A stretch of 34,418 bases of DNA, taken from contig NZ_MLCO01000084.1 of assembly GCF_001982615.1 (NCBI RefSeq), positions 1 through 34,418 on the forward strand, written 5' to 3'. The notes under the pieces were generated by a model. It saw only the letters and a list, made by a program, of their open reading frames with translations. It made no database searches and was not told the origin of the DNA. Numbering within the stretch: the stretch's first letter is position 1; each line of letters begins with the position of its first letter. The position numbers and the translations under genes are program-made. The stretch comes from Teichococcus deserti (lineage in GTDB: Bacteria > Pseudomonadota > Alphaproteobacteria > Acetobacterales > Acetobacteraceae). This document shows, piece after piece, positions 5,953 through 34,370 of the stretch.

Positions 5953-5999
5953 GAAAAGAAGGGGTCCAGGGGAATTCCTTCCCCTGGCCTTGCTTGCTC
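5953..5999 (-). terminator. Hairpin element copy 1 (terminator between convergent genes)
   Basis: A perfect 9-bp stem CCAGGGGAA/TTCCCCTGG (5966-5974 with 5979-5987) around a 4-nt loop TTCC is preceded on the plus strand by AAAAGAAGGGGT. Read on the minus strand the stem is followed by ACCCCTTCTTTT, so it can end the MetX-like transcript that stops at 6000. It is one of five copies of the same element in the window. Confidence 0.7.
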
Positions 6000-7001
6000 T
6001 CAGGCAAGCCAGTCGTTCACCGCCGCCCGGATGAAGGCGATGTCCTGCGGATTGCCGATCGGGTTGCCGGCGCGGTGTCCCCAGATGCTGGGGATGGGGC
6101 TGAGCTGCCCGTGCCGCAGGAAGGGCAGCTCGGCCTCGTTGTCGGCGGTGCGGAAATAGAGGTCGGTCGCCCCCGGCATCAGCAGCATGCGGGCCTTGAT
6201 GGCGCGCAGCGCCCGTTCCAGGTCGCCCTGATAGAGCGGGTTGGCGCTGATGTCGCCGGCGTCCCAGCAGCGCAGCTGGGCATGCAGGTTGGCGGCATCG
6301 CGCGCCAGGTAGCGTTCCTCCCAGCCGGTCAGGAAGGTCTCCAGATCCGGCGCGCCCGAGGTCGAGAGATGCAGCCCGGCGCGGTAGAAATCCTGGCTGA
6401 GGGCCCAGCCGGCATAGATGCGGCCGAAGGCGCGCAGCGCCGCGGTGGGGGGCGCCGCGAAGCGGCCATTGCCGGTATGCTCGGGCGCCGCTTCCAGCAC
6501 CGCCAGCAGGGAGCGGAGAAAGACCTGGTTGTGGACCGCGGTGCGGGCGCTGCCGCAGTTGATCACCGCCGCGCCCACGGCCTCGGGGAAGCAGGCGGCC
6601 CAGTGATAGGCCTGCTGCGCGCCCATCGACCAGCCATAGACCGCGTGCAGCTTCTCGACGCCGAAGACGTCTTGCAGCAGCCGGCGCTGGGCATGGACAT
6701 TGTCCCAGGCGGTGACCAGCGACGGATAGTCCGGCGTGTTGGACGGGCTGGAGGACAGGCCGTTGCCGAACATGTCGATCTGCACGATGCAGAAGCGCGT
6801 CGGGTCCAGCACGCCGTCAGGCCCGATCAGCCATTCCAGCTCCGGATGCTGCGCGCCGTAGCTGGTCGGATAGAGCACCAGATTGTCGCGCGCCGCGTTC
6901 AGCGTGCCATGGCGCTTCCAGCCAAGTTCCGCCGAGGCGATGGTCTCGCCGGACACCGTCAAAAAATCGCCGAGGGCGAAGCGGCCGGCCTCGCTGCTCA
7001 T
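6000..7001 (-). CDS. MetX-like alpha/beta hydrolase
   Basis: A 333-residue alpha/beta-hydrolase of the homoserine O-acetyltransferase-like group. The triad is visible as Ser125 in GWSMG, Asp280 in GATDLYF and His309 in WGHRAGNP. The N-terminal AELGWKRHGTLNAARDNLVLYPTSYG and IDMFGNGLSSSPSN segments are MetX-like, but true MetX has longer homoserine- and acetyl-CoA-binding parts, so an esterase, amidase or acyltransferase is more likely. Its ATG overlaps the stop of the upstream M81-family gene by four bases (ATGA), so the two proteins are translationally coupled and probably act on the same compound. No signal peptide. Methionine synthesis is unlikely given the context. Confidence 0.88.
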   Translation of the reverse strand: MSSEAGRFALGDFLTVSGETIASAELGWKRHGTLNAARDNLVLYPTSYGAQHPELEWLIGPDGVLDPTRFCIVQIDMFGNGLSSSPSNTPDYPSLVTAWDNVHAQRRLLQDVFGVEKLHAVYGWSMGAQQAYHWAACFPEAVGAAVINCGSARTAVHNQVFLRSLLAVLEAAPEHTGNGRFAAPPTAALRAFGRIYAGWALSQDFYRAGLHLSTSGAPDLETFLTGWEERYLARDAANLHAQLRCWDAGDISANPLYQGDLERALRAIKARMLLMPGATDLYFRTADNEAELPFLRHGQLSPIPSIWGHRAGNPIGNPQDIAFIRAAVNDWLA

Positions 7002-8518
7002 GCCGCGCCTCCGGTGGTGCTGGACGGGTCGCCGGCGCGCAGCCGGAGGCCGGGGCGCAGGTGGCGGAAGGGCAGCGTCGAGGGATCGGCGATGACCGGG
7101 CCCGGCGCGGCAGCGACGATGATGCGCTCGGCGATCGGCGTGTAGTCGGCGCGGAAATGCACCGAGGATTTCAGCGCCACGATGGTGCAGCCGGCAGGGT
7201 CCACGCCCAGGTGCCGCAGGATCGCCTGGTCATAGGCCTGGGTCTTGCGGCTGGCGACCATGACGCGGATGCCCGGGGCGAATTCCAGCAGCGCGCAGGG
7301 GCCGAGCCGCGCCCGGTTGCCCTGCCCCATCGGGCCGGTCAGCACGAAGTCGCCGTCGCCCAGCGCCAGCACCCGCGCCCGGCCGCGGAACGGCACGCCG
7401 TCCGACTTGCCGCCCAGCGCCAGGTCGAGCTCCGCCCCCTGCCCCGCCGCATGGGCGGCTGCGGCGGAGTCCGCGTCGTTGATCAGGCAGAGCACGGCGC
7501 CGCGCGCGCCCTGCGCCACCAGCTCGGCCAGCAGCCCGGTGGTGTCGGCATGGCCGCCGCCGCCGGGATTGTCCTGGGTGTCGGCGATGATCACCGGCCG
7601 CCGCGCGCCCATGGCCGATTGCAGCGCCAGCGTCACCGCTTGCTTCACCGGCATGGCGTCCGGCGTGAATTTCTTTTCGGAGGCATCGAGCAGGGCGGCC
7701 AGCTCGGCGGTCGCGGCATCGGCCTGCGCCTGGCTCTCCGCATGGCAGGAGATAGCGACGCCACAATCGGCAAAGTCGGCATAGGGGAAGCCGAAGCAGA
7801 AGCCGAGCTCGGCCACGCCATGCTTCGCGGCGATGGCGGCGCGGGCGGCCATGATGCCCTGCATCGGCTCGGCCATGGTGCATTGCGCGCTGAGGCCCAT
7901 CCAATAGTCCAGCTGCCGGAAGGCTTTCTCCCACGGCTTGCCGCGGGCGATGCGCGCCAGGAGAAGCTCCGCGGCGCGGGCGCCGGTCTCGCGCTTGTCG
8001 ATATGCGGATAGGTGCGGTAGGGCACCACCACGTCGCTGGCCGCGACCATCGCCGCGGTCAGGTTGGCATGCGGGTCCAGGCTGATGGCGACCGGCACCT
8101 CGGGACCCAGGATGCGGCGCAGCCGGGTCAGCAGCTCGCCCTCGGCATCGGGGATGCTGTCGGCCAGGGCCGCGCCATGCAGGTCGAGATAGACGCCGTC
8201 CAGCGGCGCCTCGAGCAGCGCGTCGGAGATGTCGGCCAGCAGCATCGCGGCGATGCGCTCGAAGGCGCTGTCCTGGATCGGGCCGGCCGGCATCGCCAGG
8301 CACCAGAGCAGCGGCAGCTGCGTGACGCCGGCCGCCGCCAGCACCGGCATGGCGCCGGCCAGCGCGGTCTGGGTGCCGTCCAGCGCCGCCGGCAGGGCCG
8401 GTCCCCGGGTCAGCGGCGGGAAGCCGCCCGGGCGCTGGAAATCGGCGAAGACGGTTGGCTGCGGCGCAAAGGAATGCGACTCGTGCTGGAAGCCACCGAT
8501 GGCGATGCGAAGCGACAT
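6998..8518 (-). CDS. M81 family metallopeptidase (MlrC-type)
   Basis: A 506-residue protein of the M81/MlrC family (DUF1485 N-terminal plus MlrC C-terminal domain), named after microcystinase C, which hydrolyses the linear peptide product of microcystin breakdown. Metal-binding-type motifs are present: GGFQHESHSF at residues 8-17, YLDLHGAALADS and ISLDPHANLT. The C-terminal domain shows IADTQDNPGGGGHADTTGLL and GPMGQGNRARLG. Family members are common in bacteria that never meet microcystin, so the natural substrate is probably another amide or peptide. It is the first gene of a two-gene minus-strand operon with the MetX-like hydrolase, and nothing in the sequence supports toxin degradation. 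Confidence 0.93.
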   Translation of the reverse strand: MSLRIAIGGFQHESHSFAPQPTVFADFQRPGGFPPLTRGPALPAALDGTQTALAGAMPVLAAAGVTQLPLLWCLAMPAGPIQDSAFERIAAMLLADISDALLEAPLDGVYLDLHGAALADSIPDAEGELLTRLRRILGPEVPVAISLDPHANLTAAMVAASDVVVPYRTYPHIDKRETGARAAELLLARIARGKPWEKAFRQLDYWMGLSAQCTMAEPMQGIMAARAAIAAKHGVAELGFCFGFPYADFADCGVAISCHAESQAQADAATAELAALLDASEKKFTPDAMPVKQAVTLALQSAMGARRPVIIADTQDNPGGGGHADTTGLLAELVAQGARGAVLCLINDADSAAAAHAAGQGAELDLALGGKSDGVPFRGRARVLALGDGDFVLTGPMGQGNRARLGPCALLEFAPGIRVMVASRKTQAYDQAILRHLGVDPAGCTIVALKSSVHFRADYTPIAERIIVAAAPGPVIADPSTLPFRHLRPGLRLRAGDPSSTTGGAA

Positions 8519-17092: not shown

Positions 17093-18076
17093 CTATTCGA
17101 TGCGGATCTGGGCCTTGCGGGCGACCTCGCCCCAGCGCTGGGTCTCGGCGGCGACGAAGCTGCGGAAGTCATCCGGGGTGCTGCCGACGGCGGTGATGCC
17201 GAGCTCGCTCAGCCGGCTGGCGACCTGCGGGGCCTTCAGCGCCGCCACCGCTTCCTGGTGCAGCCGGGCGATGATCGCCGGCGGCACCGCGGCGGGGGCG
17301 AAGAAGCCGTGCCAGGACAGGCTCTCGAAGCCGGGCACGCTGTCGGCGATGGCGGGGATCTCGGGGGCGGCGGCGTTGCGCTCCTTCGAGGTGACGCCGA
17401 GGATGCGCAGCTTGCCCTCCTTGTGGAAGGGCAGCACCGAGGAGAGGTTGTCGAAGGCCATCGGCACCTCGCCGGTCAGCAGCGCGGTGGTCACCTGGCC
17501 GCTGCCGCGATAGGGGATGTGCTCGATCTGGGTGCCGGTCATCTGGGCGAAGAGCGAGCCGGCCAGGTGCACCGAGGTGCCGACGCCGGAGGTGGCGAAG
17601 GAGGTCTCGCCGGGCTTGGCCTTCAGATAGGCGATCAGCTCCGGGATGCTCTTGGCCGGGAAGCTGCTGGTCACGGCCAGGGCATTGGGCTGCGCCGCCA
17701 GCTGGGTGATCGGCGCGAAGTCCTTCTGCACGTTGTAGGGCAGCACCGGATAGATCGACGGGTTGATGGCGTGGCTGCTGATGGTGCCCAGGCAGAAGGT
17801 GTAGCCGTCCGGCGTCGCGCGGGCGCAGGCCTCGCTGCCGATGTTGCCGCCGGCGCCGGCGCGGTTCTCGACCACCACCGGCTGGCCGAGAGCCTTGCTC
17901 ATGCCCTGCCCGACCAGGCGGGCGATGGTGTCGGAGGTGCCGGCGGAAAACGGCACGATCAGCCGGATCGGCTGGTTCGGATAGTTGGCCTGGGCGGCCG
18001 CGCCCCTGGGCAGCAGGGCAGCGAGGCCGGAGCCGGCGAGCAGCGCCGCGGCGCCACGACGGGAGAGGTGGAGCAT
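17093..18076 (-). CDS. Tripartite tricarboxylate transporter substrate-binding protein (TctC/Bug family)
   Basis: A 327-residue periplasmic binding protein. A signal peptide is visible ([18 protein letters not shown], ending near [11 protein letters not shown]). The mature part has Bug-family marks: [41 protein letters not shown] (ligand-carboxylate loop), [19 protein letters not shown], and [18 protein letters not shown]. Bug proteins bind carboxylates and, besides serving TctAB membrane subunits, many are orphans. No TctA or TctB gene is in the window. It is first in the sugar-acid operon, so an aldonic or keto acid is a likely ligand. It is divergent from a GntR-family regulator. Confidence 0.95.
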
Positions 18077-18158
18077 GCGATGGCTTCCTCGATGGTGGCC
18101 CCTGGGGGGCCCTTGTTTGCCTGGACGTTGACGGCGCAGGGTCCGCCTGGCGACAAAA

Positions 18159-18170
18159 CTGATATATTAG
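18159..18170. promoter_or_regulatory. AT-rich quasi-palindrome in the tctC-gntR gap
   Basis: CTGATATATTAG pairs at 5 of 6 positions and stands out as a run of A/T in a GC-rich gap between the divergent regulator and the tctC operon. It may be the regulator's operator or contain a -10 box (TATATT). No well-spaced -35 box could be found on either strand. It does not match the candidate operator upstream of the ALDH gene. Confidence 0.35.
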
Positions 18171-18232
18171 ATTTTTCCCGTCAAGCGGCAGCTTTCCGGC
18201 GGCGCCGGGCTTTGCTAAGCGGTTGGAAGACA

Positions 18233-18973
18233 ATGCCAGATGCCGAAGCCCCCTCTGTCCTGGAGCGCGACCGCGCCGCCGCCGGCCGGCCGGAGGACGC
18301 CCTGCCGAGCTTCGGCCGCCGCCCCTCTGCCGCCGAATTCGCCTACGAGTCCCTGCGCGAGGCGGTGATCTCGCTGGCCCTGCCGCCGGGCGCCGCCCTG
18401 TCCCGCGCGGCGCTCGCCGCCCGTTTCGGCGTCAGCCAGACCCCGGTGCGCGAGGCGATCATCCGGCTGCAGGCGGAAGGCCTGGTCGAGGTCGTCCCGC
18501 AATCCGCCACCCGCGTCGCCCGCATCGACCTGGCCAGCGCGCGCGAGGCCAGCTTCCTGCGCCTGGCGCTGGAGCTGGAGATCGTCCGCCGCCTGGCCGC
18601 CGCCCCGCGTGACGCCAGCTTCGAGGCCGGCCTGCTGGACGAGCTGGCCCGCATGCGCGCCCGCCTGGCCGCCGGCGATGCGCCCGGCTTCAGCGCCGCC
18701 GACGAGGCCTTCCACGCGGCGCTCTACGCCGCCGCCCGCGTGCCCCGCCTGCGCGAGCTGGTGCGCAGCCGCAGCGGCCATCTGGACCGCCTGCGCCGCT
18801 TGCACCTGCCGAGCCCGGGCAAGGCGGAAGCGGTGATGCGTCAGCACGAGGCGCTGGCCGAGGCGATCCTGGGCGGCGAGCCGGAAGCCGCGGCGGCGCA
18901 TCTGCAGCAGCACCTGTCGGGCACCTTCGCGGAGGTGGAGCGGATCAGGGGCGCGTTTCCGGAGTTTTTCTAA
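18233..18973 (+). CDS. GntR family transcriptional regulator, FadR/FCD subfamily
   Basis: A 246-residue regulator. The winged helix-turn-helix spans about residues 34-100 (AEFAYESLREAVISLALPPG, LSRAALAARFGVSQTPVREAIIRLQAEGLVEVVPQ). The C-terminal all-helical FCD domain (about 108-235) has the metal-ligand pattern DEAFHAALYAAARVPRL and a later MRQHEALAEAILGGEPEAA. FCD regulators respond to carboxylic or sugar acids. It is divergent from the tctC-ALDH-dehydratase-RraA operon, which it probably represses until the substrate appears. GGAAGA lies just before the ATG. The first 30 residues are a Pro/Ala-rich extension. Confidence 0.93.
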   Translation: MPDAEAPSVLERDRAAAGRPEDALPSFGRRPSAAEFAYESLREAVISLALPPGAALSRAALAARFGVSQTPVREAIIRLQAEGLVEVVPQSATRVARIDLASAREASFLRLALELEIVRRLAAAPRDASFEAGLLDELARMRARLAAGDAPGFSAADEAFHAALYAAARVPRLRELVRSRSGHLDRLRRLHLPSPGKAEAVMRQHEALAEAILGGEPEAAAAHLQQHLSGTFAEVERIRGAFPEFF

Positions 18974-18974
18974 G

Positions 18975-19026
18975 ACCAGGGGGAAGAATGTATTCTTCCC
19001 CCCGGACCCCCCATCATCTTCTTCTA
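18975..19026 (+). terminator. Hairpin element copy 4 (terminator after gntR)
   Basis: A perfect 10-bp stem GGGGGAAGAA/TTCTTCCCCC (18979-18988 with 18993-19002) around TGTA can be extended by two pairs past one mismatch. It is followed on the plus strand by GGACCCCCCATCATCTTCTTCT. This is the element in reverse orientation, placed 5 nt after the gntR stop, and can end that transcript. Confidence 0.75.
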
Positions 19027-19175
19027 TCACCGGCCGTTGCCGGACCTGCGCCTTGCCGGCACCGACATCAGGGCATCACGGCGGGACGCGTCCTATGGAA
19101 ATGGCGCAACCGTGAGAGTCGCGCCCCGCTGCGGTGCAGCGTCCCGCATCGCCAAGGCCGCGCGGCAGCACTGAC
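19027..19175. other. Structured non-coding gap between two facing hairpin elements
   Basis: No gene is seen. GCGGGACGC (19081-19089) and GCGTCCCGC (19139-19147) pair perfectly over 9 bp and enclose 49 nt that contain GGCGC/GCGCC. CGCTGC-GGT-GCAGCG (19127-19141) is an alternative hairpin that would break the outer stem. CCGGC-CGTT-GCCGG lies further upstream. The mutually exclusive folds could be a regulatory leader of the GGT-like gene, a small RNA, or chance in GC-rich DNA. No cobalamin-box or other known riboswitch motif could be fitted. Confidence 0.25.
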
Positions 19176-19222
19176 AGAAGAAAGATGGGGTCCAGGGGAA
19201 TTCATTCCCCTGGCCTGCCCTT
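19176..19222 (-). repeat. Hairpin element copy 2 upstream of the GGT-like gene
   Basis: AGAAGAAAGATGGGGT precedes a perfect 9-bp stem CCAGGGGAA/TTCCCCTGG (19192-19200 with 19205-19213) with loop TTCA. The orientation is that of a minus-strand terminator, yet no minus-strand gene ends here. It lies 63 nt before the GGT-like start codon and faces copy 4. On the plus strand a pyrimidine-rich tract follows the stem, so it could also act as a leader hairpin for the downstream gene. Confidence 0.65.
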
Positions 19223-19276
19223 GCCTTCTCTCTCCTCCTCTTCCTGAATGCGGCGAACGGAAGACAGGAGATCCCG

Positions 19277-20884: not shown

Positions 20885-20901
20885 TCTGACCGGATGATTC
20901 A

Positions 20902-20928: not shown

Positions 20929-20936
20929 ATCACACG

Positions 20937-21740: not shown

Positions 21741-21817
21741 CGCAGCATCCTGCCGCGCATGTTCCACTTTCCGGACCAAACCGGCGGCATCGAAAGCCTC
21801 CACTTCCGCTCAGCGAG

Positions 21818-21850
21818 ATTCTGAACGCATAGCTCTCATTCACAGAAAAT
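21818..21850. promoter_or_regulatory. Candidate operator in the iclR-hyuA gap
   Basis: ATTCTGAA (21818-21825) and TTCACAGAAAAT (21839-21850) are near-complementary arms, with a two-base bulge in the right one, around 13 nt of AT-richer sequence. The position between divergent iclR and hyuA and the TGAA/TTCA half-sites suit an IclR-family site, but the symmetry is imperfect. Confidence 0.3.
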
Positions 21851-21932
21851 GTGGCTTGCGGAGCGGCGCGGTGCAACGAAATAGTAAAGGCCATCCATCG
21901 CATTCATCCTTTCAAAGGGGAGCGGAGCGGGC

Positions 21933-24005: not shown

Positions 24006-25648
24006 GCTCCGCCCTGCAGCCCTCGAGCGCGCCGGTGCTGGACCCGATCACCGTCGAGGTGATCGGTGCCGCCCTCTCCTCCATCGTCGAGGAAACCGGC
24101 GAAGCGCTGATCCGCGCCTCCTACTCGACCAACATCAAGGAGCGGCGCGACTGCTCCACCGCGCTGTTCAACGCTGCCGGCCACACCCTCTGCCAGGCCG
24201 AGCACATCCCGATCCATCTCGGCAGCTTCATCGGCATCGTGCCGCATATCATGAAGCTGCACGATTTGGCCGAGATGAAGCCCGGCGACGTCTTTGTCGG
24301 CAATGACGCCTATGAAGGCGGCGGCACGCATCTGCCCGACATCGTCCTGGCCGAGCCGATCTTCGTCGACGGCGCCATTGCCGCCTGGACGGTGAACCTG
24401 GCGCATCACTCCGACTTCGCCGACCGCGGCCATGCGCATATCTACCAGGAAGGCCTGCGCATCCCGCCCGTGCGCCTCTACCGCGCAGGCCAGCTGCAGA
24501 AAGACGTGCAGGAGCTGATCCTGCTGAACTGCCAGGTCCCGCGCGAGCGCCTCTCCGACCTGCGCGCCCAGATGGCCGCCAACCGCGTCGGCGTGCAGCG
24601 CTTCCAGGCGCTCTGCGCGAAATACGGCACCACCACGGTGCTGGCCGCCGGCGAGGCGCTGCTCGACTATGCCGAACGCAAGATGCGCGCCGGCATCGCC
24701 GCCATGCCCGACGGCACCTGGCGCTTCGAGGATGTCTTCGACAACCCCGAGATCACCACCAACCTGCCGCTCGCCGTCGACGTCACCATCGCCCGCGACA
24801 GCATGACGCTGCATTTCGAATCGCCCGATCAGCTGCGCGCCGGCCTGAACATGACCTACACCGCGCTGCTGGCCACCGCCTACTACGTGGTGAAATCGGT
24901 GGTCGACCCGACCATCCTGCCCAATGCCGGCCTGGCGCGCCCGATAACCGTCACCGCACGCAGCGGCAGCGTGCTGAACTGCGCCCACCCTGCCGCCGTC
25001 AACGGCCGCGTGCAAACCTGCCAGCGCGTCTCGGACCTGATCCTCGGCGCCCTCGCGCAAGCCGTTCCCGACCGCGTCACCGCCTGCTCCAACTCGACCT
25101 GCACGGTCGCGACCTTCATCGGCCAGCGCAAGGACAACGGCGCCATCTGGGTCTATCTCGAGACCATGGGCGGCGGTGGCGGCGCCCGCGCCTCCAAGGA
25201 CGGCCTCGACGGCGTGCATGTCCACGTCACCAACACCTCCAACCTCCCCGTCGAGGCGCTGGAGCTCGAATACCCCTTGACCCTGCTGCGCTACGAGCTG
25301 GTCGCCGAATCCGGCGGTGTCGGCGAGTTTCGCGGCGGCATGGGCCTGCGCCGCGTCTATCGCGCCGACGAGGACTGCCGCGTGCGCGTCGACGTCTCCC
25401 GCCTGCGCTCGCAAAGCTGGGGCCTGCTCGGCGGCGGCCCGGGCGGCAATGGCCACGTCGAATGCGGCCCCGGCGTCACCTTCGATCGCGACAACGCGGT
25501 GCTGAAGGCGGGACAATGGTTTGCCGTCGTCTCGCCCGGCGCCGGTGGCTACGGGCCGCCGGAGAAGCGAGACCCAAAGGCGATCCAGCGGGATCTGGCG
25601 GAAGGCGTGATCGGAACCGACACCGCCACCACCATCTACAAGGCATAA
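24002..25648 (+). CDS. hyuB: Hydantoinase/oxoprolinase family protein, B subunit
   Basis: A 548-residue partner of the A subunit that hydrolyses the phosphorylated ring intermediate. Family marks are DPITVEVIGAALSSIVEETGEALIRASYSTNIKERRDCSTALF at the N terminus, QAEHIPIHLGSFIGIVPH, GDVFVGNDAYEGGGTHLPDI (putative metal-binding region), and AHHSDFADRGHA-type segments. C-terminal ETMGGGGGARASKDGLDGVHVHVTNTSNLPVEALE and GGVGEFRGGMGLRRVYR are typical. Its start overlaps the hyuA stop (ATGA), so the subunits are made in balance. A hairpin element lies directly after the stop and may reduce read-through into the ABC transporter genes. Confidence 0.94.
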   Translation: MSSALQPSSAPVLDPITVEVIGAALSSIVEETGEALIRASYSTNIKERRDCSTALFNAAGHTLCQAEHIPIHLGSFIGIVPHIMKLHDLAEMKPGDVFVGNDAYEGGGTHLPDIVLAEPIFVDGAIAAWTVNLAHHSDFADRGHAHIYQEGLRIPPVRLYRAGQLQKDVQELILLNCQVPRERLSDLRAQMAANRVGVQRFQALCAKYGTTTVLAAGEALLDYAERKMRAGIAAMPDGTWRFEDVFDNPEITTNLPLAVDVTIARDSMTLHFESPDQLRAGLNMTYTALLATAYYVVKSVVDPTILPNAGLARPITVTARSGSVLNCAHPAAVNGRVQTCQRVSDLILGALAQAVPDRVTACSNSTCTVATFIGQRKDNGAIWVYLETMGGGGGARASKDGLDGVHVHVTNTSNLPVEALELEYPLTLLRYELVAESGGVGEFRGGMGLRRVYRADEDCRVRVDVSRLRSQSWGLLGGGPGGNGHVECGPGVTFDRDNAVLKAGQWFAVVSPGAGGYGPPEKRDPKAIQRDLAEGVIGTDTATTIYKA

Positions 25649-25697
25649 GAGAAGGCTGGGGGAAGGAATTCCCCCAGACCCCCATCTTCTTTTTGAC
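25649..25697 (+). terminator. Hairpin element copy 3 (terminator after hyuB)
   Basis: A perfect 9-bp stem CTGGGGGAA/TTCCCCCAG (25656-25664 with 25669-25677) around GGAA is followed by ACCCCCATCTTCTTTTT. This is the element in reverse orientation with the best T-tract of the five, directly after the hyuB stop. It lies inside a same-strand gene block, so it may be a partial terminator. Confidence 0.75.
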
Positions 25698-25782
25698 TTA
25701 CAAGCACAAAGAACATCGGGCCACCAAGCAAGGGCTCGCGCGGTTGCAGGGCATCTTCAACGCTGGAGCAGGAGAGTTCGCG

Positions 25783-27306
25783 ATGGCCACCCTCCCCACC
25801 ACCCGCCGCGCCGTCATGGCTGGTGCCGCGCTGCTGCCCTTCCTGCGCATGCCGCAGGCCCGCGCGAAGACGCCGGGGGTGCTGACCTTCGGCCTCTCCA
25901 GCTACCCGCCCACCATCCAGCCCTGGGCCAACAGCGGCACCGCCGCCGCGACCATCAAGCTGATGATCTATCGCGGCCTCACCTCCTATAGCGCGGACGG
26001 CAAGCTGCAGCCCGAGCTCGCCGAATCCTGGACCCGCGAGACCGACACCAGCTGGGTCTTCAAGCTGCGCGACGCCAAGTTCCAGAACGGCGAGAAGGTC
26101 ACTTCCGCCGACATCAAATGGACCTTTGAGCAGATCGCCGGCGAACGCTCCACCGCCTATTTCCGCTCCGAGGTGCAAGGCTTCGAGCGCGTCGAGACGC
26201 CCGATGACCTGACGGTGCGCATCGTCACCAAGCAGCCCACCGTGACCCTGCCGGTCTGGATGGCCAGCTACCATCTGCCGATCATCTCGCGCAATTCGCC
26301 GCGCGGCCAGTTCGTCGGTGCCGGCCCCTTCGTGCTGAAGGGCCAGGAACGCGGCGTCTCCCTCGACCTCGAACCTTTCGAGGGCTACTACAAGCCCGGC
26401 TTGCCCAAGCTGCGCGGCATCCGCGTCGTGGCTTACGCTGACGAGAACCTGCGCACCGCCGCGCTGCAATCCGGCGACGTCGACCTGATCGAATACGTTC
26501 CCTGGCAGGCGATGGACGCCATCGCCGCCAATCCGGGCCTGTCGCTCGACGCGGTCGACGGCGCCTTCATGTTCCTCGTCTTCAACGGCAGCAAGCCGCC
26601 CTTCAACGACGCCCGCGTTCGCAAGGCCGTCGCTCACGCCATCAACCGCGACGACCTGGTCAAGGCCGCCTTCTTCGGCCGCGGCTCCGGCCTCGCGCAT
26701 CTGCCCATCCCGGAATCCAGCGCCTTCTACAACGCCGACTTCAAGGACGGCTGGAAATACGACCCGGCGCTGTCGAAGAAGCTGCTGGCCGATGCCGGCC
26801 ATGGCGGCGGCATCAACTGCTCGTTGCTCTCCACCGCGCAATACGGCATGCACAAGGACACCGCCGAGGTCGTGCAGCAGCACCTCGCCGCCGTCGGCAT
26901 CAACGTCACGCTGAACCTGCCGGACTGGGCGACCCGCGTCGCCGTCGGCAACCGCGGGCAATACGACATGGCGGTGATGGGCACCGCCGCCGACAGCAAC
27001 GATCCCGACGGCCTCGCCAGCTTCATCGACGGTGCCCTCTCGCCCTCCTATGTCCGCAGCTTCGGCTTGAAGACCGAGCGCATCACGCAGCTCCTCGCCG
27101 CCGGCCGCGCTGAATTCGACGAGACGAAGCGCCGCGCCATCTACCGCGAGATGGAGCAGGTCGCGATCGAGGAAGCGCCGATGGTCGGCCTCACCTGGCG
27201 CAGCCAGGGCTATGCCATGCGTAAGGCGGTCACCGGCTTCCGCAACCTGCCGGGCGCGCTGACCTTCTATTCCGGCCTGACCTTCGAGACCGCCGCGGTC
27301 GGGTGA
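25783..27306 (+). CDS. ABC transporter substrate-binding protein, family 5 (peptide type)
   Basis: A 507-residue periplasmic binding protein of the DppA/OppA family. The N terminus has a twin-arginine-like TRRAVMAGAALLPFLRMPQARA signal. The mature protein shows IYRGLTSYSADGKLQPELAESW, the family segment WVFKLRDAKFQNGEKVTSADIKWTFEQI, and FNGSKPPFNDARVRKAVAHAINRDDLVKAAFFGRG. Ligands of the family include short peptides, opines, nickel complexes and glutathione. AGGAG is 8 nt before the ATG. It opens a run of four transporter genes with 6-nt or overlapping junctions, downstream of hyuAB. A cyclic-amide, dipeptide or glutathione-like ligand would suit the context but is not shown. Confidence 0.94.
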   Translation: MATLPTTRRAVMAGAALLPFLRMPQARAKTPGVLTFGLSSYPPTIQPWANSGTAAATIKLMIYRGLTSYSADGKLQPELAESWTRETDTSWVFKLRDAKFQNGEKVTSADIKWTFEQIAGERSTAYFRSEVQGFERVETPDDLTVRIVTKQPTVTLPVWMASYHLPIISRNSPRGQFVGAGPFVLKGQERGVSLDLEPFEGYYKPGLPKLRGIRVVAYADENLRTAALQSGDVDLIEYVPWQAMDAIAANPGLSLDAVDGAFMFLVFNGSKPPFNDARVRKAVAHAINRDDLVKAAFFGRGSGLAHLPIPESSAFYNADFKDGWKYDPALSKKLLADAGHGGGINCSLLSTAQYGMHKDTAEVVQQHLAAVGINVTLNLPDWATRVAVGNRGQYDMAVMGTAADSNDPDGLASFIDGALSPSYVRSFGLKTERITQLLAAGRAEFDETKRRAIYREMEQVAIEEAPMVGLTWRSQGYAMRKAVTGFRNLPGALTFYSGLTFETAAVG

Positions 27307-27312
27307 CGGCGC

Positions 27313-28266
27313 ATGCTGGCCTTCGCCGCCCGCCGCCTCGCCGTCTCGCTCGCCCTGGTCTGGGTGGTGGCGACGCTGGTCTTCCTGGTCATCCACATGA
27401 TCCCAGGCGACCCGGCCGAGCTGCTGCTCGCCCAGGGCGGCGTCGCGCCCGATCCCGCCCTGGTCGCCGATCTGCGCGAGCGCCTTGGCCTCGACCAACC
27501 GCTCTGGACGCAATACGCGACCTATATGGGCGGGCTGCTGCAAGGCGATTTCGGCCTGTCGCTGCAGGACGAGCACGCCGTCGCCGACGAGATCGCGCTG
27601 CGCCTGCCCCGCACCCTGGAGCTCGTCGCCACGGCCGGCCTGCTGTCCGTGCTCATCGGCCTGCCGGCGGGCGTGCTCGCGGGCTTGCGCGCCGGCCAGC
27701 TGACCGACCGCATCCTCTCCGGCATCGCAGCACTCGCCTTGTCGATCCCGGTCTTCGTCATCGGCACCCTCGCCGTGCTGCTGCTGGCGCAGAAACTGCG
27801 GCTGGTCTCGGCCGGCGGCTACGTTCCCTTCGCCACCGATCCGCTGCGCCACATCGGCTTGTTGCTGATGCCGGCAGGCACCATCGCCTTTGGCTTGGCC
27901 GCCGTCGTGCTGCGCGTCACCCGCGGCGCCGTGCTGGAAGTGCTGGAGCGCGAGCATGTCCGCGCCGCCCGCGCCCGCGGCCTGCCCGCCGGCGCCATCA
28001 TCCGCCGTCACGTGCTGCGCAATTCGCTGACCCCCGTCGTCACCGTGGTCGCGCTGCATCTGGGCGCGCTGCTCGGCGGCACGGTGCTGGTGGAGTTCGT
28101 CTTCAACTGGCCCGGCCTCTCCGGCTATCTCGTCCGCTCGGTCGAGGCGCGCGACTATCCCGAGGTGATGGGCATCGTCCTCGTCGTCTCCGCGATCTTC
28201 GTGCTGCTGAACTTCCTGGTCGATATGCTCTACGCCGTCATCGACCCACGCGTGAGGCAGGGCTGA
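27313..28266 (+). CDS. ABC transporter permease (DppB-type)
   Basis: A 317-residue inner-membrane permease with six hydrophobic segments. Family marks are LAVSLALVWVVATLVFLVIHMIPGDPAELL at the N terminus, LGLDQPLWTQYATYMGGLLQGDFGLSL, and the coupling EAA-like loop VRAARARGLPAGAIIRRHVLRNSLTPVVT near residues 215-245. It ends ARDYPEVMGIVLVVSAIFVLLNFLVDMLYAVIDPRVR, the usual end of DppB proteins. It starts 6 nt after the binding-protein gene. Its TGA shares its final A with the next ATG (TGATG), so translation is coupled to the fused permease-ATPase. Confidence 0.95.
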   Translation: MLAFAARRLAVSLALVWVVATLVFLVIHMIPGDPAELLLAQGGVAPDPALVADLRERLGLDQPLWTQYATYMGGLLQGDFGLSLQDEHAVADEIALRLPRTLELVATAGLLSVLIGLPAGVLAGLRAGQLTDRILSGIAALALSIPVFVIGTLAVLLLAQKLRLVSAGGYVPFATDPLRHIGLLLMPAGTIAFGLAAVVLRVTRGAVLEVLEREHVRAARARGLPAGAIIRRHVLRNSLTPVVTVVALHLGALLGGTVLVEFVFNWPGLSGYLVRSVEARDYPEVMGIVLVVSAIFVLLNFLVDMLYAVIDPRVRQG

Positions 28267-30106
28267 TGCGCCGCTCGCTCCGCCGCCTGGTGCTGCCCGC
28301 TGGCCTGCTGGGCCTCATCCTGCTGCTGGCCCTCGCAGCCCCCCTGCTGCCGCTGGCCGATCCGGTGCGGCAGAACATCGCCGGCCGCCTGGCGCTGCCC
28401 TCCGCCAATTTCTGGCTGGGCCAGGACGAATACGGCCGCGACGTGCTGTCGCGCATCCTCTGGGGCGCGCGCGTCTCGCTCAGCGTGGCGCTTGCCGCCA
28501 CCATCATCGCCGCCGTCATTGGCACGCTGCTCGGCATCCTCGGCGGTTATTTCCGCAAGTTTGTCGAGCTGGTCACGGTCCGCCTGGCCGAGGTCGTGCT
28601 CTGCTTCCCGCCGATGCTGCTGGCGCTGCTGGTGGTCACCCTGCTCGGCCCTGGCGCCGGCACGCTGGTCGTCTCGCTCGGCATCCTCTTCGCGCCCGCC
28701 TTCGCCTGCCTCGCCTATGCCGAGACCTTGTCGGCCCGCGCGCTGGACTATGTCACGGCGCAGCAGGCGTTGGGCGCAGGTCCCGGCCGCATCCTGCTGC
28801 GCACCCTGCTGCCCAACATCGCGCCGCCGCTGATCGTGCAGTTCTCGCTGACCGTCGCCTCCGCCATGGTGCTGGAAAGCGGACTCTCCTTCCTCGGCCT
28901 CGGCGTGGTGCCGCCCTCGCCCTCCTGGGGGCTGATGATCCGCGGCGCGCGCGCCACCATGGAACAGGCGCCGCTGCTGCTCTTCTGGCCCTGCCTGGCG
29001 CTGGCGGGCACGGTGCTGGTGCTGAACCTGTTCTGCGACCGGCTGCGCGACGCGCTGGACCCGCGCGCGGGCGGCGGCGGCCCGGCCGGCTTCCTGCGCC
29101 GCGCCGCCGCTTTGCCCGGCCCCGCCCTCCGCAAGGATGCCACGCCCGGCCTGCTCCGCATCCGCGGGCTGACGCTGGAAATCACCGGCCCGCGCGGCCC
29201 CGTCGCCGTGGTGCGCGACGTCGGCTTCAGTGTCGCGCCTGGCAAAACCCTCGCGCTGGTCGGCGAAAGCGGCAGCGGCAAGACGCTGACCGGCCTGGCC
29301 GTGATGGGCCTGCTGCCCGGCGCCGTCCGCGTCGCCTCGGGCGAGATCCTCTATACCAGCCGCGACGGCGCGACGCGCGACCTGCTGCGCCTGCCGGAGG
29401 CCGAGCTGCGCGCGCTGCGCGGCCGCGACCTCTCCATGGTCTTCCAGGACCCCTCCAGCAGCCTGAACCCCTTGCTGCGCATCGGCAGCCAGGTGGCCGA
29501 GGCCCTGCCCCGCGCCCCCGGCCGCATGGCGCGCGTGGTCGAGCTGTTCCGCCAGGTCGGCCTGCCCGACCCCGAGGGCCGCGCCCGCGCCTGGCCACAT
29601 GCCCTGTCCGGCGGCCAGCGCCAGCGCGTGATGATCGCCGCCGCCATCGCCAACCATCCGCGGCTGCTGCTGGCCGACGAGCCCACCACCGCCCTCGACG
29701 TCACCGTGCAGGCGCAGATCCTCGAGCTGCTGGCAGGGTTGAAGCGCAGCGAGCAGGGCATGGGCATGGTCTTCGTCACCCACAACCTGGCCGTCGTCGC
29801 GCAGATCGCTGACCGCGTCGCGGTGATGTATGCCGGCGAGGTGGTGGAAGAAGGCCCCGTCGCCGAGGTCTTCACCGCCCCCCGCCACCCCTATACCGCC
29901 GCGCTGATCGCCGCGACCCCGGAGGGCGAGGCCGAGCGCCTCTCTGCCATACCAGGGGCGGTGCCGCAGGCCTGGGCCATGCCAGCCGGCTGCCGCTTCG
30001 CCCCCCGCTGCAGCGAGGCCCGCCCCGCCTGCGCCCAGACCGCGCCGCCGCTGCAGTCGATCGGCCCTGGCCGCGCCACGCGCTGCCTGCGCTGGAAGGA
30101 GCTGGC

Positions 30107-30110
<4 letters not shown>
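28266..30110 (+). CDS. Fused ABC permease (DppC-type) and ATP-binding protein (DppD-type)
   Basis: One uninterrupted 614-residue frame joins two normally separate subunits. Residues 1-266 are a DppC-type permease (LGQDEYGRDVLSRILWGAR, the EAA-like ALDYVTAQQALGAGPGRILLRTLLPNI, SGLSFLGLGVVPPSPSWGLMI, ending DRLRDALDPR). A Gly/Pro/Ala linker of about 30 residues follows. Residues 296-614 are a complete ATPase: Walker A GESGSGKT (333-340), Q-loop Q394, signature LSGGQRQR (447-454), Walker B LLLADEP (467-473), switch H506, and the C-terminal oligopeptide-transporter region with CRFAPRC. Such fusions are known in peptide/nickel transporters. It overlaps the next ATPase gene by four bases (ATGA). 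Confidence 0.94.
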
Positions 30111-31105
<995 letters not shown>

Positions 31106-31124
31106 CCCAAGGATCCCTGGTCCC

Positions 31125-31820
31125 ATGCTGAACCCCGAAGGCCGCGTCGTCATGCTCTCCGGCGCCAGCCGCGGCATCGGCCGCGCCGTGCTGGAGCGCC
31201 TGCTGGCCGCCGGCTGCACCATCAGTGCCGGCGTGCGCGACCCTGCCCGCCTGCCGCAGCACCCCAACCTGACCCATACCCGCTACGACGCGGAAAAGAC
31301 CGGCAGTGCCGAGGCCTGGGTCGAGGCCACGATGCAGAAGCACGGCCGCATCGACGCGCTGGTCAATGCCGCCGGCATCAATCCGCGCGGCACGCTGCTC
31401 GATGCGGACGAGACCGTCTTCGACACCAGCTGGACGGTCAATGCCAAGGGGCCGATGCGCGCCATCCGCGCCGCCTGGCCGCATCTGGTCGCCTCCGGCA
31501 CCGGGCGCGTGGTCAACATCGCCTCGCTCTCCGGCAAGCGCGTCAAGAACGACAACCTTGCCTACGCCATGAGCAAGTTCGCTGTCATGGCTTTGACGCA
31601 GGAGGTGCGCCGCGCCGGCTGGGACAGCGGCATCCGCGCCACCGCCCTCTGCCCCGGCTTCGTCGACACCGACATGACCGCGCATGTCACCAAGACGCCG
31701 CGCAGCGCCATGTCGCGCCCCGACGACGTCGCTGCTTTGGTCGAGACCGTGCTGCACCTGTCCAACAACGCCACCGTCGCCGAGCTGCTGGTCAGCTGCC
31801 GGCACGAGGAGCTGGTGTGA
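31125..31820 (+). CDS. SDR family NAD(P)-dependent oxidoreductase
   Basis: A 231-residue classical short-chain dehydrogenase/reductase. The dinucleotide motif is SGASRGIG (12-19), NAAG is at 81-84, the catalytic Ser is S134 (NIAS), and the Tyr-Lys pair is Y147/K151 in YAMSK. PGFVDTDM follows as usual. The first Gly of TGxxxGIG is preceded by Ser rather than Thr, a common change. It is the last gene of the hyuAB-transporter run, 19 nt after the ATPase gene, so it may reduce or oxidise a hydroxyl or keto group in the same compound. Substrate unknown. Confidence 0.93.
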   Translation: MLNPEGRVVMLSGASRGIGRAVLERLLAAGCTISAGVRDPARLPQHPNLTHTRYDAEKTGSAEAWVEATMQKHGRIDALVNAAGINPRGTLLDADETVFDTSWTVNAKGPMRAIRAAWPHLVASGTGRVVNIASLSGKRVKNDNLAYAMSKFAVMALTQEVRRAGWDSGIRATALCPGFVDTDMTAHVTKTPRSAMSRPDDVAALVETVLHLSNNATVAELLVSCRHEELV

Positions 31821-32114
31821 GGCTGCACCCGTCGGCGGCCAGGTCCGTCTGCGGCGGATCCCGCGCGGCGCCGTCGTCGTGGGTGGCGGCCCTGGCGGGA
31901 GCGGCGCCAATCCGGAAGACGGCCGCCCCCTGGTGCCTGCGCTGGCCGGCTTGCAGCTGATCCGCGGCTGGAGCGGCAGCGACGGCCCAATGCCCGACCG
32001 CCTCCCGCGGATCGGGCCGGGCCGTTCCCGGCCTGTTCCACGCCCTCGTATTCTCTGGCGTATTCTCTGGCTGTGGCCTGCCCCGCCGACACTGTCCTGA
32101 TGGAGCCTGCGACC
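31821..32114. other. 294-nt gap between SDR and FGase-like genes
   Basis: I see no convincing gene. The first 225 nt are GC-rich with no family-like translation in any frame and no strong hairpin. The last part is less GC-rich and holds a 12-bp tandem duplication that includes two TATTCT boxes, so a promoter for the FGase-like gene may lie there. Confidence 0.4.
32047..32070 (+). repeat. 12-bp tandem duplication CGTATTCTCTGG
   Basis: Two perfect head-to-tail copies (32047-32058 and 32059-32070), 45 nt before the FGase-like start. Each copy carries TATTCT, close to a -10 box. It could be a duplicated promoter element, a pair of regulator half-sites about one helical turn apart, or a slippage product. 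Confidence 0.6.
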
Positions 32115-32966
32115 ATGCTGACCGAGCTTCGCCCCGGCGTCTTCGCCCGCCGCGACCCCGAGGGCGCCGCCGCCCCCGTCATCTTCGACATCCCGCGCAG
32201 CGGGGCCGAATATCCGCGCGACTTCCGCAGCATCGCGGCGCTGACCGACCTGCAGCGCTCGATCTCGATGTATGTCGAGGAATGCTATGCCGACGTCACC
32301 AGGGCCGGCGCCACCTGGCTCTACGCCTGCTTCCCCAATGCCTATATCGACCCCAACCGCCATGCGCTGGACATCGACCCGGCGGCGCTGGACGGCGAAT
32401 GGCCGGAGGCGCTGAAGCCCTCGCCCAAGACCAGCGCCGGCATCGGGCTGATCCCCATGGTCTGCGCGGGGACCAGGCCGCTCTATGACGGCAAGCTCAG
32501 CATCGCCGATGTGCGCAACCGGCTCGACAACTACTACCTGCCATACCACGGCGAACTCGCCCGGCTGCTGCAGGCGGCGCGCCAGAAGTCTGGCGTGGCC
32601 TATCACCTGTCCTGCCACTCCATGCCGGCCGTCGCCGCCAGTGGGCCGGATGCCGGGCAGCGGCGCTCGGATTTCGACCTCGGCGACCGCAACGGCACCA
32701 CCTGCGCGCCCGAGCTCGTCGAGGTGGTGGAAAAGACGCTCGCCGGCTTCGGCTATAAGGTCACCCGCAACGCGCATTTCATCGGCGCCGAATGCGTCCG
32801 CCAGCACGGCAACCCGGCGGGCGGCATCCACAGCCTGCAGATCGAGATGAATCGTGGCCTCTACATGGACGAGGCGGCGCGGACCCGCCGGCCGGAACTT
32901 GGCCAGGTGCGCGACCATCTGACCGCCGTGGCCACGGCCGTCGCCGCGCTCGCCGGCCGGGCCTGA
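32115..32966 (+). CDS. N-formylglutamate amidohydrolase family protein
   Basis: A 283-residue protein of the N-formylglutamate amidohydrolase (FGase/HutG-like) family; the type enzyme frees glutamate and formate from N-formylglutamate at the end of histidine breakdown. Marks are YACFPNAYIDPNRHALDID, RPLYDGKLSIADVRNRLDNYYLPYH, the CHSMP segment (167-171) and DFDLGDRNGTTC (186-197). The N-terminal PHSG motif of the family reads PRSG (27-30), so a usual His is Arg28. No other hut gene is nearby, so another N-acyl amino acid may be the substrate. I chose the second ATG because GGAG is 9 nt before it; the first, at 32100, adds five residues. Confidence 0.9.
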   Translation: MLTELRPGVFARRDPEGAAAPVIFDIPRSGAEYPRDFRSIAALTDLQRSISMYVEECYADVTRAGATWLYACFPNAYIDPNRHALDIDPAALDGEWPEALKPSPKTSAGIGLIPMVCAGTRPLYDGKLSIADVRNRLDNYYLPYHGELARLLQAARQKSGVAYHLSCHSMPAVAASGPDAGQRRSDFDLGDRNGTTCAPELVEVVEKTLAGFGYKVTRNAHFIGAECVRQHGNPAGGIHSLQIEMNRGLYMDEAARTRRPELGQVRDHLTAVATAVAALAGRA

Positions 32967-33300
32967 AACACGTCTGCCTGGACGGTCCTGCCTTGACGGT
33001 CCCTGGGGAGTCCTGCCTGGGGTCCAGGCTGATCCAGCAGGTCACCCCCGCCACACCCTCGTGGAAGGGCAGGTAGATGTCCCTCGGCATCGCTGCGGGC
33101 CGAGCCCGGGCAAGACGGCGGGGCCGATGCCTCGTTCAGGGCGCGGCCAGGACCGGCACGGCCGATAGGGCGAGCGCGGCAGCCGCCTGGGAACCGCACC
33201 GGGAGACGGGTCGGTCAGCCCCCGCCTGGCCGGCCCCGCTTGGCAAGGGTGGCGCCACGGTGGCAGGCTGGCCTTCCCTAGCGAGAAGGCTGCCCCTGCC
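32967..33300. other. 334-nt gap between FGase-like and flavoprotein genes
   Basis: No intact gene is seen. The left third carries on the minus strand a short stretch that resembles part of a phytanoyl-CoA dioxygenase. It also holds short direct repeats (GACGGTCC twice, GTCCTGCC twice). The remainder is GC-rich with no hairpin followed by a T-tract. A ribosome-binding site (GAGAAGG) for the flavoprotein lies at the right end. Confidence 0.4.
32992..33090 (-). pseudogene. Possible remnant of a phytanoyl-CoA dioxygenase-like gene
   Basis: The minus strand reads MPRDIYLPFHEGVAGVTCW followed by ISLDPRQDSPGTVK. This resembles the core of PhyH-type Fe(II)/2-oxoglutarate dioxygenases, where an HxD metal motif is followed by Y-x-P and then W-[IL]-x-L-D. 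The HxD position reads PRD, so one ligand would be lost. Both sides stop looking like the family at once, and the frame runs into the antisense of the FGase-like gene. The resemblance covers only about 33 residues and may be chance. Confidence 0.28.
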
Positions 33301-34245
33301 ATGCCCTTGCCCGTCGCGCTGCAGAACCGCCTGGCCATCCCCGCCGTGGCCGCGCCGATGTTCCTGGTCTCCGGCCCCGACCTGGTGGTGGAGACCTGCA
33401 AGGCCGGCCTGCTGGGCACCTTCCCGACGCTGAACCAGCGGACCACGGACGCCTATGTCGACTGGCTGCAGGAGATCGCCTCCCGGCTGGCGGCGGCGCC
33501 GGCCGCCGCGCCCTTCGGCGTCAACCTGATCGTCCACCGCAGCAACAAGCGGCTGGAGGCCGATCTGAAGGCGACGGTCGACAACCGCGTCCCGCTGGTC
33601 ATCACCTCGCTCGGCGCGGTGAAGGAGGTGGTGGAGGCGGTGCATGGCTATGGCGGGCTGGTGTTCCACGACGTCATCAACCTGCGCCATGCCGCCAAGG
33701 CGGCTGAGGCCGGCGTCGACGGGCTGATCGCCGTCTGCAACGGCGCCGGCGGCCATGCCGGCACGCTGAACCCCTTCGCCTTCCTGACCGAGCTGCGGCA
33801 GATCTTCGACGGCACGCTGCTGCTGGGCGGCTCGATCGGCCAGGGGCGGCAGGTCGCGGCGGCGCAGCTGATGGGCGCCGACCTGGCCTATATCGGCACC
33901 CGCTTCGTCGCCACCGCCGAGAGCATGGCGCCGGCAGAATACAAGCAGATGGTGCTGGAGGCCTCGGCCAAGGACATCGTCTACACGGCGGCGATCAGCG
34001 GGGTGAAGGCGAATTTCCTGCGCGCCTCGATCGTTGCCGCCGGGCTGGACCCGGACAAGCTGGACGAGGCCGCCGGCGGCAACCTGTCCGAGCACGAGAA
34101 GCGGCCCTGGAAGAACATCTGGTCGGCGGGGCATGGCGTCGGCAGCATCGACGACCTGCCGACGGCGGCGGCGCTCTGCGCCCGGCTGATCGAGGAGTAT
34201 CGCGCCGTCGCCCCGCGCGCCGTCCTGGCCGACGCGGCGGATTGA
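33301..34245 (+). CDS. NAD(P)H-dependent flavin oxidoreductase / nitronate monooxygenase family
   Basis: A 314-residue FMN-dependent TIM-barrel protein of the nitronate monooxygenase (2-nitropropane dioxygenase-like) family. Marks are IPAVAAPMFLVSGPDLVVETCKAGLLGTFP at the N terminus (FMN-binding APM), PFGVNLIVHRSN, the phosphate-binding and catalytic region CNGAGGHAGTLNPFAF (146-161, His152 as the likely base), and LGGSIGQGRQVAAAQLMGADLAYIGTRFVAT, the second FMN phosphate site. Members oxidise propionate-3-nitronate or act as quinone or enoyl reductases. GAGAAGG lies about 11 nt before the ATG. It stands alone, and its role may be protective rather than part of the upstream block. Confidence 0.93.
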   Translation: MPLPVALQNRLAIPAVAAPMFLVSGPDLVVETCKAGLLGTFPTLNQRTTDAYVDWLQEIASRLAAAPAAAPFGVNLIVHRSNKRLEADLKATVDNRVPLVITSLGAVKEVVEAVHGYGGLVFHDVINLRHAAKAAEAGVDGLIAVCNGAGGHAGTLNPFAFLTELRQIFDGTLLLGGSIGQGRQVAAAQLMGADLAYIGTRFVATAESMAPAEYKQMVLEASAKDIVYTAAISGVKANFLRASIVAAGLDPDKLDEAAGGNLSEHEKRPWKNIWSAGHGVGSIDDLPTAAALCARLIEEYRAVAPRAVLADAAD

Positions 34246-34325
34246 CTGTCCGGTATCCTTCGGGCCCCGCCGCGATGCCCTGACAGCAGGCCAATGAGGC
34301 GCTGGTCTCCCAACGGCCGGTCATC

Positions 34326-34370
34326 AGAAAAAAGAAGGGGGTGCGGGGGAATTCATTCCCCCGCCCTGCC
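34326..34370 (-). terminator. Hairpin element copy 5 near the right window edge
   Basis: AAAAAAGAAGGGGGT precedes a perfect 9-bp stem GCGGGGGAA/TTCCCCCGC (34343-34351 with 34356-34364) with loop TTCA. Read on the minus strand the stem is followed by a C-tract and TTCTTTTTT, a good terminator. This suggests a minus-strand gene ending just to the right; the last bases can be read as Tyr-Gly-Thr-Lys-stop on that strand (stop at 34403-34405), too little to call a gene. Confidence 0.68.

What the first reader, a model, noticed from the sequence alone, without database searches (positions are those of the whole stretch)
5953..34370. A dispersed hairpin element in five copies with paired stem changes
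Copies at 5953-5999, 18975-19026, 19176-19222, 25649-25697 and 34326-34370 share one plan: AAAAGAAG(AT)-GGGGTCC-like box, a perfect stem of 9-10 bp, and a 4-nt loop. The stems are CCAGGGGAA/TTCCCCTGG (twice), CTGGGGGAA/TTCCCCCAG, GCGGGGGAA/TTCCCCCGC and GGGGGAAGAA/TTCTTCCCCC. Each difference in one arm is matched in the other, which argues for selection on the folded form. All copies lie at gene borders, in both orientations. Most fit terminators for the gene on the T-rich side, but the conserved GGGGTCC box beyond the stem is more than a terminator needs. It may be a lineage-specific terminator family, a REP-like mobile hairpin, or a protein-binding mRNA end.
Basis: seen in the sequence. Interest (0 to 1): 0.75.

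Follow-up and report, generated by a model that had tools for sequence, protein, structure and literature searches.

The report
Dispersed hairpin repeat at gene ends
This bacterium carries hundreds of copies of one short hairpin sequence, often in inverted pairs and mostly placed where genes end; it looks like a new relative of the known REP repeats that may double as the end marker of messenger RNAs.

Summary
The five hairpins are real and belong to a large repeat family. A strict stem pattern occurs 322 times in the 6.25-Mb genome (backwards control 0). Stem plus box occurs in 16 of 17 genus genomes (0-266 copies), 5 of 41 other-genus genomes of the family and 0 of 40 outside it. Named hits are Roseomonas/Pseudoroseomonas.

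Copies form inverted dimers: 83 of 84 distinct neighbours under 400 bp apart face each other, tails inward. Window copies 18975 and 19176 are the two ends of one ~250-bp element; 34326 is a half element. A probe for the long spacer finds 93 and 92 places in this species and its nearest relative, background elsewhere. Copies lie outside genes (0 of 66), mostly right after stop codons; many dimers fill convergent gaps.

Stem covariation is strong. The tail is not a canonical terminator tail: RCCCC separates stem from T-run. Neither REP tag (GTAG, CGTC) fits; no RAYT-type transposase match in 16 of 17 genus genomes.

Best reading: a REP-like dimer family without the known tags or RAYT, reused as mRNA-end hairpins. 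Termination is inferred, not shown.

The parts
5941..5996 (-). single hairpin unit in the 48-bp gap between convergent genes (+ gene ends 5951, - gene ends 6000); flanks do not match the long spacer
18975..19222 (.). full long dimer: B-end hairpin, spacer, A-end hairpin, tails facing inward; lies between two + strand genes (stop at 18973, start at 19277)
   Evidence: nearest relative G011 keeps only A-side sequence here, alignment junction 18974|19139
18967..19030 (+). B-end hairpin (divergent copy, stem GGGGGAAGAA/TTCTTCCCCC)
   Evidence: 22.9 bits
19103..19125 (.). central hairpin of the spacer, imperfect here; in several other copies close to CAGCGCGACCTTNNAGGTCGCGCTG followed on the A-to-B strand by a run of T
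   Evidence: sequence, alignments
19167..19222 (-). A-end hairpin
   Evidence: 61 bits
25647..25702 (+). single hairpin unit directly after the stop codon that ends at 25648; present in G011, absent from 10 other genus orthologues, whose gaps are shorter
34259..34372 (-). half element (B half of the spacer plus B-end hairpin at 34318-34373), after a + gene ending at 34245; the contig ends at 34418

Best explanation
This is a genus-level family of repetitive extragenic palindromes. Its unit is a 9-bp stem with a 4-nt loop, then an RCCCC box and a T-rich tail. Copies occur as inverted dimers with the two tails facing each other across a spacer, and as singles. In the lineage of this species and Roseomonas sp. 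18066 one long dimer (~235-250 bp, asymmetric spacer) reached roughly 90 copies. Copies are found almost only outside genes, mostly right after stop codons, so they now form the RNA 3' ends of flanking genes: each end folds as its own hairpin behind one gene, and a dimer between convergent genes gives each gene one hairpin. Shown: family, dimer arrangement, placement, presence and absence at orthologous sites, stem covariation. Inferred: that the dimer is the unit that was copied, that the hairpins end or protect transcripts, and that machinery outside the RAYT family did the copying.
For: Copy number and control; genus-limited, uneven distribution including one member, G009, with none; dimer orientation in 83 of 84 distinct close neighbours, the other one same-strand, with spacings that differ by species: 141-180 bp in the unselected sample of this genome, 22-95 in G003, 59-152 in G008, and 39, 141, 154, 183 in G011; homologous spacers over the full length in this genome; 93 and 92 A-arm places in G000 and G011 (backwards control 9 each) against 0-8 in 15 others (control 3-16); 0 of 66 copies inside genes in the whole own sample, and 0 of 31 (own, unselected), 0 of 15 (G011), 0 of 22 (G003), 2 of 21 (G008) and 1 of 120 (pattern-fetched named records); 15 of 21 own dimers lie in a convergent gap, 27 of these 30 ends starting 4-27 nt after the stop and 3 overlapping it, measured from the edge of the match; at two orthologous convergent sites own and G011 carry the long dimer while relatives carry a single copy or none; stem covariation.
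Against: No transcript data were available. The tail is not canonical. No target duplication, excision product or mobilising gene was identified; orthologous gaps are too diverged to show a clean empty site. All six sites compared between own and G011 are occupied in both (one by a partial element), so movement after their split was not seen; two of the six G011 loci were fetched because they hold the hairpin. Pairing between the two ends of a dimer shows no compensatory change, so one large REPIN-like hairpin is not supported. 18-47% of copies in the samples are singles.
Confidence: 0.7

Rival explanations
1. It is a plain family of intrinsic terminators whose sequences became alike by shared selection, not by copying.
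For: Position after stop codons; unpaired copies whose tail faces the upstream gene carry an A-run of four or more before the stem (a U-tract on that gene's RNA) in 11 of 25 cases, against 22 of 136 paired copies (p=0.005) and 1 of 12 unpaired copies lying the other way (p=0.058); several relatives have other GC-rich palindromes at the same gene ends (by eye).
Against: Homology extends over the whole spacer of the long form, neighbours keep one arrangement, copy number jumps between species of one genus, and the box is an odd part of a terminator.
Confidence: 0.15
2. It is a miniature inverted-repeat transposon moved by an ordinary IS transposase, with the hairpins as its terminal repeats.
For: Nearly fixed length of the long form and inverted ends of about 50 bp, high copy number in one lineage; one dimer holds an extra stretch with an OmpA-like open reading frame.
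Against: In the 4 facing pairs 400-3000 bp apart that were seen, no gene between them looks like a transposase (by eye); no target duplication seen; 18-47% of copies are singles. Whole genomes were not scanned for IS ends.
Confidence: 0.3
3. The long element is a structured non-coding RNA gene, and the hairpins are its parts.
For: Conserved spacer with a central hairpin.
Against: Covariation beyond the two end hairpins is weak: of 51 consensus pairs 9 show a change on both sides, 6 of them in the end hairpins; reverse strand 3 of 33; no Rfam family at gathering score in the window; no promoter-like site called in 18000-34418 (sigma-70 consensus only).
Confidence: 0.06

Closest known systems
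CGTC-tagged REP super-family (PMC3733652; sections 6 and 15, first part of section 17, and passages seen)
   Same: 8-9 bp stem, 4-5 nt loop, mostly one type of inverted dimer, clusters rare, no transposase association; copies between convergent ORFs mostly under 20 bp from both 3' ends (stated there for S. wittichii CGTC-1 and P. entomophila GTAG-1).
   Different: No CGTC tag (nor the TGTC/CCTC variants the paper names): the base of the stem is followed by RCCCC (GGGGY on the other strand). The paper reports CGTC repeats missing in Acetobacteraceae. Here many spacers are longer than the 20-100 bp given there for most dimers, and a T-rich tail is conserved.
REPINs and GTAG-tagged REPs with RAYT (PMC3116915, PMC8049555; passages seen)
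   Same: Palindromic unit, hundreds of copies, extragenic, inverted doublets, singlets present.
   Different: No GTAG tag; Y1 transposase match in only one of 17 genus genomes, a 36-position match just over the cut-off; no compensatory changes in the pairing between the two ends.
Bacterial MITEs (recalled; only search listings seen)
   Same: Short, non-coding, inverted ends, many copies, expansion in one lineage.
   Different: No target duplication or partner IS identified; the ends are themselves hairpins and also occur alone.
Intrinsic (Rho-independent) terminators (recalled)
   Same: GC-rich hairpin near a T-run after a stop codon.
   Different: 4-6 C between stem and T-run in the tail direction; sequence homology between copies far beyond the hairpin.

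Membership tests
GTAG REP / REPIN | GTAG at one foot of the palindrome | tested here: not met
   Alignment of 72 copies: one foot is followed by RCCCC, the other preceded by AAGG
GTAG REP / REPIN | RAYT (Y1) transposase in the genome | tested here: not met
   0 in own genome; 1 of 17 genus genomes (G006) has a 36-position match, 22.6 bits, just over the cut-off with its neighbours in frame; the control rings in 5 of 14 known genomes
GTAG REP / REPIN | inverted doublets | tested here: met
   83 of 84 distinct neighbours under 400 bp face each other
GTAG REP / REPIN | the two units pair into one large hairpin | tested here: inconclusive
   Predicted fold pairs box and tail of both ends, but these pairs vary on one side only or break
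CGTC REP | CGTC (or TGTC, CCTC) tag next to the stem | tested here: not met
   tag definition from PMC3733652 section 6
CGTC REP | stem 8-9 bp, loop 4-5 nt | tested here: met
   9 bp and 4 nt; loop 4 was part of the pattern and the only loop tried (301 copies; 280 distinct ones with at least 6 of 9 pairs)
CGTC REP | next to 3' ends of flanking ORFs | tested here: met
MITE | target site duplication | tested here: inconclusive
   Orthologous gaps too diverged to define the empty site
MITE | parent IS with the same ends | tested here: inconclusive
   4 facing pairs 400-3000 bp apart seen, none with a transposase by eye; whole genomes not scanned
Intrinsic terminator | T-run starting 0-2 nt after the stem | tested here: not met
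   Tail direction: 0 of 5 window copies called; opposite strand 1 of 5. Some singles of the genus do have a T-run close to the stem on the opposite strand
Intrinsic terminator | stops transcription | not testable with these tools
   needs Term-seq or in vitro transcription

The most novel reading that the evidence does not exclude
A third REP super-family, tagged by an RCCCC box instead of GTAG or CGTC and spread by machinery other than RAYT, that supplies the ends of convergent genes with a ready-made two-way terminator. A palindrome of about 20 bp occurs in this genus only at the stem-box junction of these repeats (19 of 19 places, up to 1 mismatch, 17 genomes), as if the repeat were itself a site-specific target.
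Probability: 0.25. Interest if true: 0.65.

Novelty: new variant of a known kind. Interest (0 to 1): 0.42.

Why it matters
REP repeats are common, but how they spread where no RAYT gene is found is open. This genus offers species with 0 to about 270 copies, orthologous sites with and without the repeat, and a traceable expansion of one long dimer. That makes both the copying mechanism and the cost or use of repeat-borne mRNA ends testable. It could also improve transcript-end annotation in Roseomonas-like genomes, since the simple consensus scan used here missed these hairpins in their tail direction.

Tried and rejected
Rfam: no family at gathering score on the window; the 11 weak matches (window 18900-19300) are all far below their cut-offs. 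Y1/RAYT as the mobiliser: not found in 16 of 17 genus genomes. End-to-end pairing of a dimer as the selected structure: not supported by compensatory change. Phages and plasmids: one long element has no match in 50,697 phage records and only its first 45-51 bases, the hairpin end, match 3 plasmid records, two Pseudoroseomonas and one Roseomonas. Literature: searches listed no paper reporting such a repeat in Roseomonas; 33 and 76 named Roseomonas, 77 Acetobacteraceae; of the 44 papers only 25 were listed, all with 0 occurrences of Roseomonas. RepRanger (PMC12306157, passages) reports 1,369 REPs in Lichenicola cladoniae, which I recall to be an Acetobacteraceae; whether they include this family was not tested. 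One ancestral empty site could not be reconstructed because relatives differ from each other.

Limits of counts: gene calls come from my own codon-usage predictor, not a published one. Own-genome stretches were chosen because their contigs hold copies; the unselected own sample is 564 kb. The G011 contigs had appeared in hit lists. The named-genus set was fetched by pattern, so it is biased to presence, and a partner scoring under 18 bits or beyond a locus edge makes a copy look single. One search scores at most 97 candidates per genome, so its counts are lower bounds. One search counted 86 of 87 neighbours with some duplicate DNA and loci from other phyla; one search repeats it without them (83 of 84). 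The wobble count (13 against 39) treats cells as independent although copies are related, and 21 of 301 copies were dropped there as duplicates, too near a locus edge, or with fewer than 6 of 9 pairs. In one search elements longer than 330 bp or shorter than 200 bp (2 of 21 dimers) were left out. Gene names such as hydantoinase or transporter, where used in my working, are recalled, not tested by a call.

Full report
What is in the window. The five hairpins are as described. A covariance model made from 72 family members (A1; model) finds these five places and no other in the window. Four score 57-69 bits and were in the training set; the copy at 18967-19030 is divergent, 22.9 bits.

Family size and range. 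The strict stem GGGGAA-N3-7-TTCCCC occurs 322 times in the genome, 0 times for the pattern read backwards. With the box added (GGGGAANNNNTTCCCCNNNRCCCC) there are 253 in G000 and matches in 21 of 98 genomes: 16 of 17 of the genus, 5 of 41 other-genus members of the family (1-19 copies), 0 of 40 from other families. Within the genus counts run from 0 (G009) through 3, 9 and 21 to 208 (G003) and 266 (G011). The covariance model agrees: 22 of 58 genomes, namely 16 of 17 of the genus, 5 of 17 other-genus members of the family and one weak match (E 5e-4) among 24 genomes from outside it; G009 again has none.

Dimers. The hairpin with its tail is often followed by a second copy on the other strand, tails facing inward. 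Of 84 distinct neighbours under 400 bp apart, 83 have this arrangement, one is same-strand and none is tail-out. Spacings differ by species: 141-180 bp in the unselected sample of this genome, 22-95 in G003, 59-152 in G008; four in G011 are 39, 141, 154 and 183. In G000 the long spacers are homologous over their whole length: a B arm, a central hairpin with a T-run on one strand in several copies, and an A arm. A probe for the A arm (up to 3 mismatches) finds 93 places in G000 and 92 in G011, where the backwards control gives 9 each; the other 15 genus genomes have 0-8 with controls of 3-16. G010 and G014 each hold one truncated relative at the same place: their loci align over 2.9 kb at 94% identity. 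So the long form is not confined to the two species, but it multiplied in their lineage. In the window 18975-19222 is a long dimer and 34259-34372 a half element (alignment score 27 against a shuffle maximum of 14). The flanks of the single at 5941-5996 do not match the spacer; downstream of 25702 there is no clear match (13.5 against a shuffle maximum of 12.5 that was taken over fewer comparisons).

Where copies sit. My gene caller reproduces sensible genes and% of 534 kb coding. In 917 kb of this genome 0 of 66 copies lie in genes. In further samples the counts inside genes are 0 of 31 (own, unselected, 85% coding), 0 of 15 (G011), 0 of 22 (G003), 2 of 21 (G008) and 1 of 120 (named records fetched by pattern). 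Of 21 dimers in G000, 15 lie between two convergent genes, 5 between tandem genes and 1 at a contig edge; 27 of the 30 convergent ends start 4-27 nt after a stop codon and 3 overlap it. In the unselected own sample 17 of 30 copies with known context lie in convergent gaps, against 78 of 457 adjacent gene pairs that are convergent.

Presence and absence at sites. At window 25649 own and G011 carry the single hairpin; ten other genus orthologues have shorter gaps without it, one of them (G004) with other palindromes (by eye). At two convergent sites on contig C76 own and G011 carry the long dimer. At the first, the three relatives with both flanks aligned have gaps of 51-59 nt with unrelated GC-rich palindromes; at the second, G010 and G014 carry a single copy of this family and eight further relatives carry none; at a third site (C582, tandem genes) own and G011 carry the dimer and three aligned relatives do not, two of them having about 0.8 kb of other sequence there. 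Six sites could be compared between own and G011; all are occupied in both, one (window 18975) by only part of the element in G011, but two of the six G011 loci were fetched because they hold the hairpin. Spacer identity of the five full orthologues is 81-91% against a mean of 78% between copies within G000, and in three of five cases the G011 element scores better against another G000 copy than against its own counterpart. That fits expansion shortly before the species split, with or without later exchange between copies.

Structure. On 72 aligned copies the three outer stem pairs change on both sides in 57 cells, with 0 of 500 shuffles reaching that; sliding the partner by one column removes most of it; the number of pairs with a double change and of pair types is not above shuffles. 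The inner six pairs were fixed by the search pattern; on 280 distinct copies found by a profile (itself trained on such copies) they are also nearly invariant. Pairing between box and tail of the two ends, which the fold predicts, shows one-sided or broken pairs only: each hairpin is kept on its own. One oddity: non-Watson-Crick stem cells that would still pair as G-U number 39 on the strand opposite to the tail and 13 on the tail strand, p=0.0004 if independent, which they are not fully.

Does it end transcripts? Placement and stem selection suggest that an RNA hairpin at the 3' end matters. But the tail has RCCCC(C) between stem and T-run, and the scans call none of the five in that direction, one of five in the other. 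Over all samples unpaired copies between tandem genes lie 25 times with the tail towards the upstream gene and 12 times away from it; in this genome alone the split is 6 to 5. The former carry an A-run of four or more before the stem, a U-tract for the upstream gene's RNA, in 11 of 25 (1 of 12 in the latter, p=0.058; 22 of 136 in paired copies, p=0.005). So singles may be tuned as terminators through their other side, while dimers keep box and tail inside. Termination stays an inference.

What it is not. No GTAG or CGTC tag (definitions). No Y1 transposase in own genome and a 36-position match just over the cut-off in one of 17 genus genomes. No Rfam family. The closest described behaviour is that of REPs in Sphingomonas wittichii (CGTC-1) and Pseudomonas entomophila (GTAG-1), whose copies between convergent ORFs mostly lie under 20 bp from both 3' ends (PMC3733652 section 15); the same paper states that CGTC repeats are missing in Acetobacteraceae. 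So it behaves like a CGTC-type REP and is not a member by tag.

Verdict. A real, sizeable REP-like family that the searches made here did not find in print, with a long dimer form and a likely role at mRNA ends; a new variant of a known kind rather than a new category.

Noticed in passing
L321-L336, L100:2869, L304:10771 and 12637: A perfect or near-perfect palindrome GCAAACRTATAYGTTTGC occurs at 19 places in 6 of 17 genus genomes (up to 1 mismatch, control 0), and in 19 of 19 it lies between the hairpin stem and the C-rich box. One viral contig holds it in another setting.
   Followed up: partly
L155, L156, L165, L168, L170 and eight more loci of JAITHF01; L144, L182, L184 of WQTY01: Unrelated metagenome genomes (a Spirochaetaceae and a proteobacterium) have dispersed GGGGGAAC..GTTCCCCC hairpins followed by ACCCC(C), without a T-rich tail: same plan, perhaps independent.
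   Followed up: no
L028:13648-14363: A dimer whose ends are 613 bp apart and enclose an open reading frame of 158 aa with an OmpA match below the curated cut-off (E 0.00026, 21.7 bits, cut-off 27.2).
   Followed up: partly
genome G009: One genome of the genus has no copy by pattern or model, a natural contrast for finding the factor that spreads the repeat.
   Followed up: no
window 25703-25783: Downstream of the single hairpin own and G011 also carry extra sequence before the next gene that most other orthologues lack; no clear match to the long element.
   Followed up: partly
stems of 280 distinct copies: G-U-type cells are three times commoner on the strand opposite to the tail (39 against 13).
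   Followed up: partly
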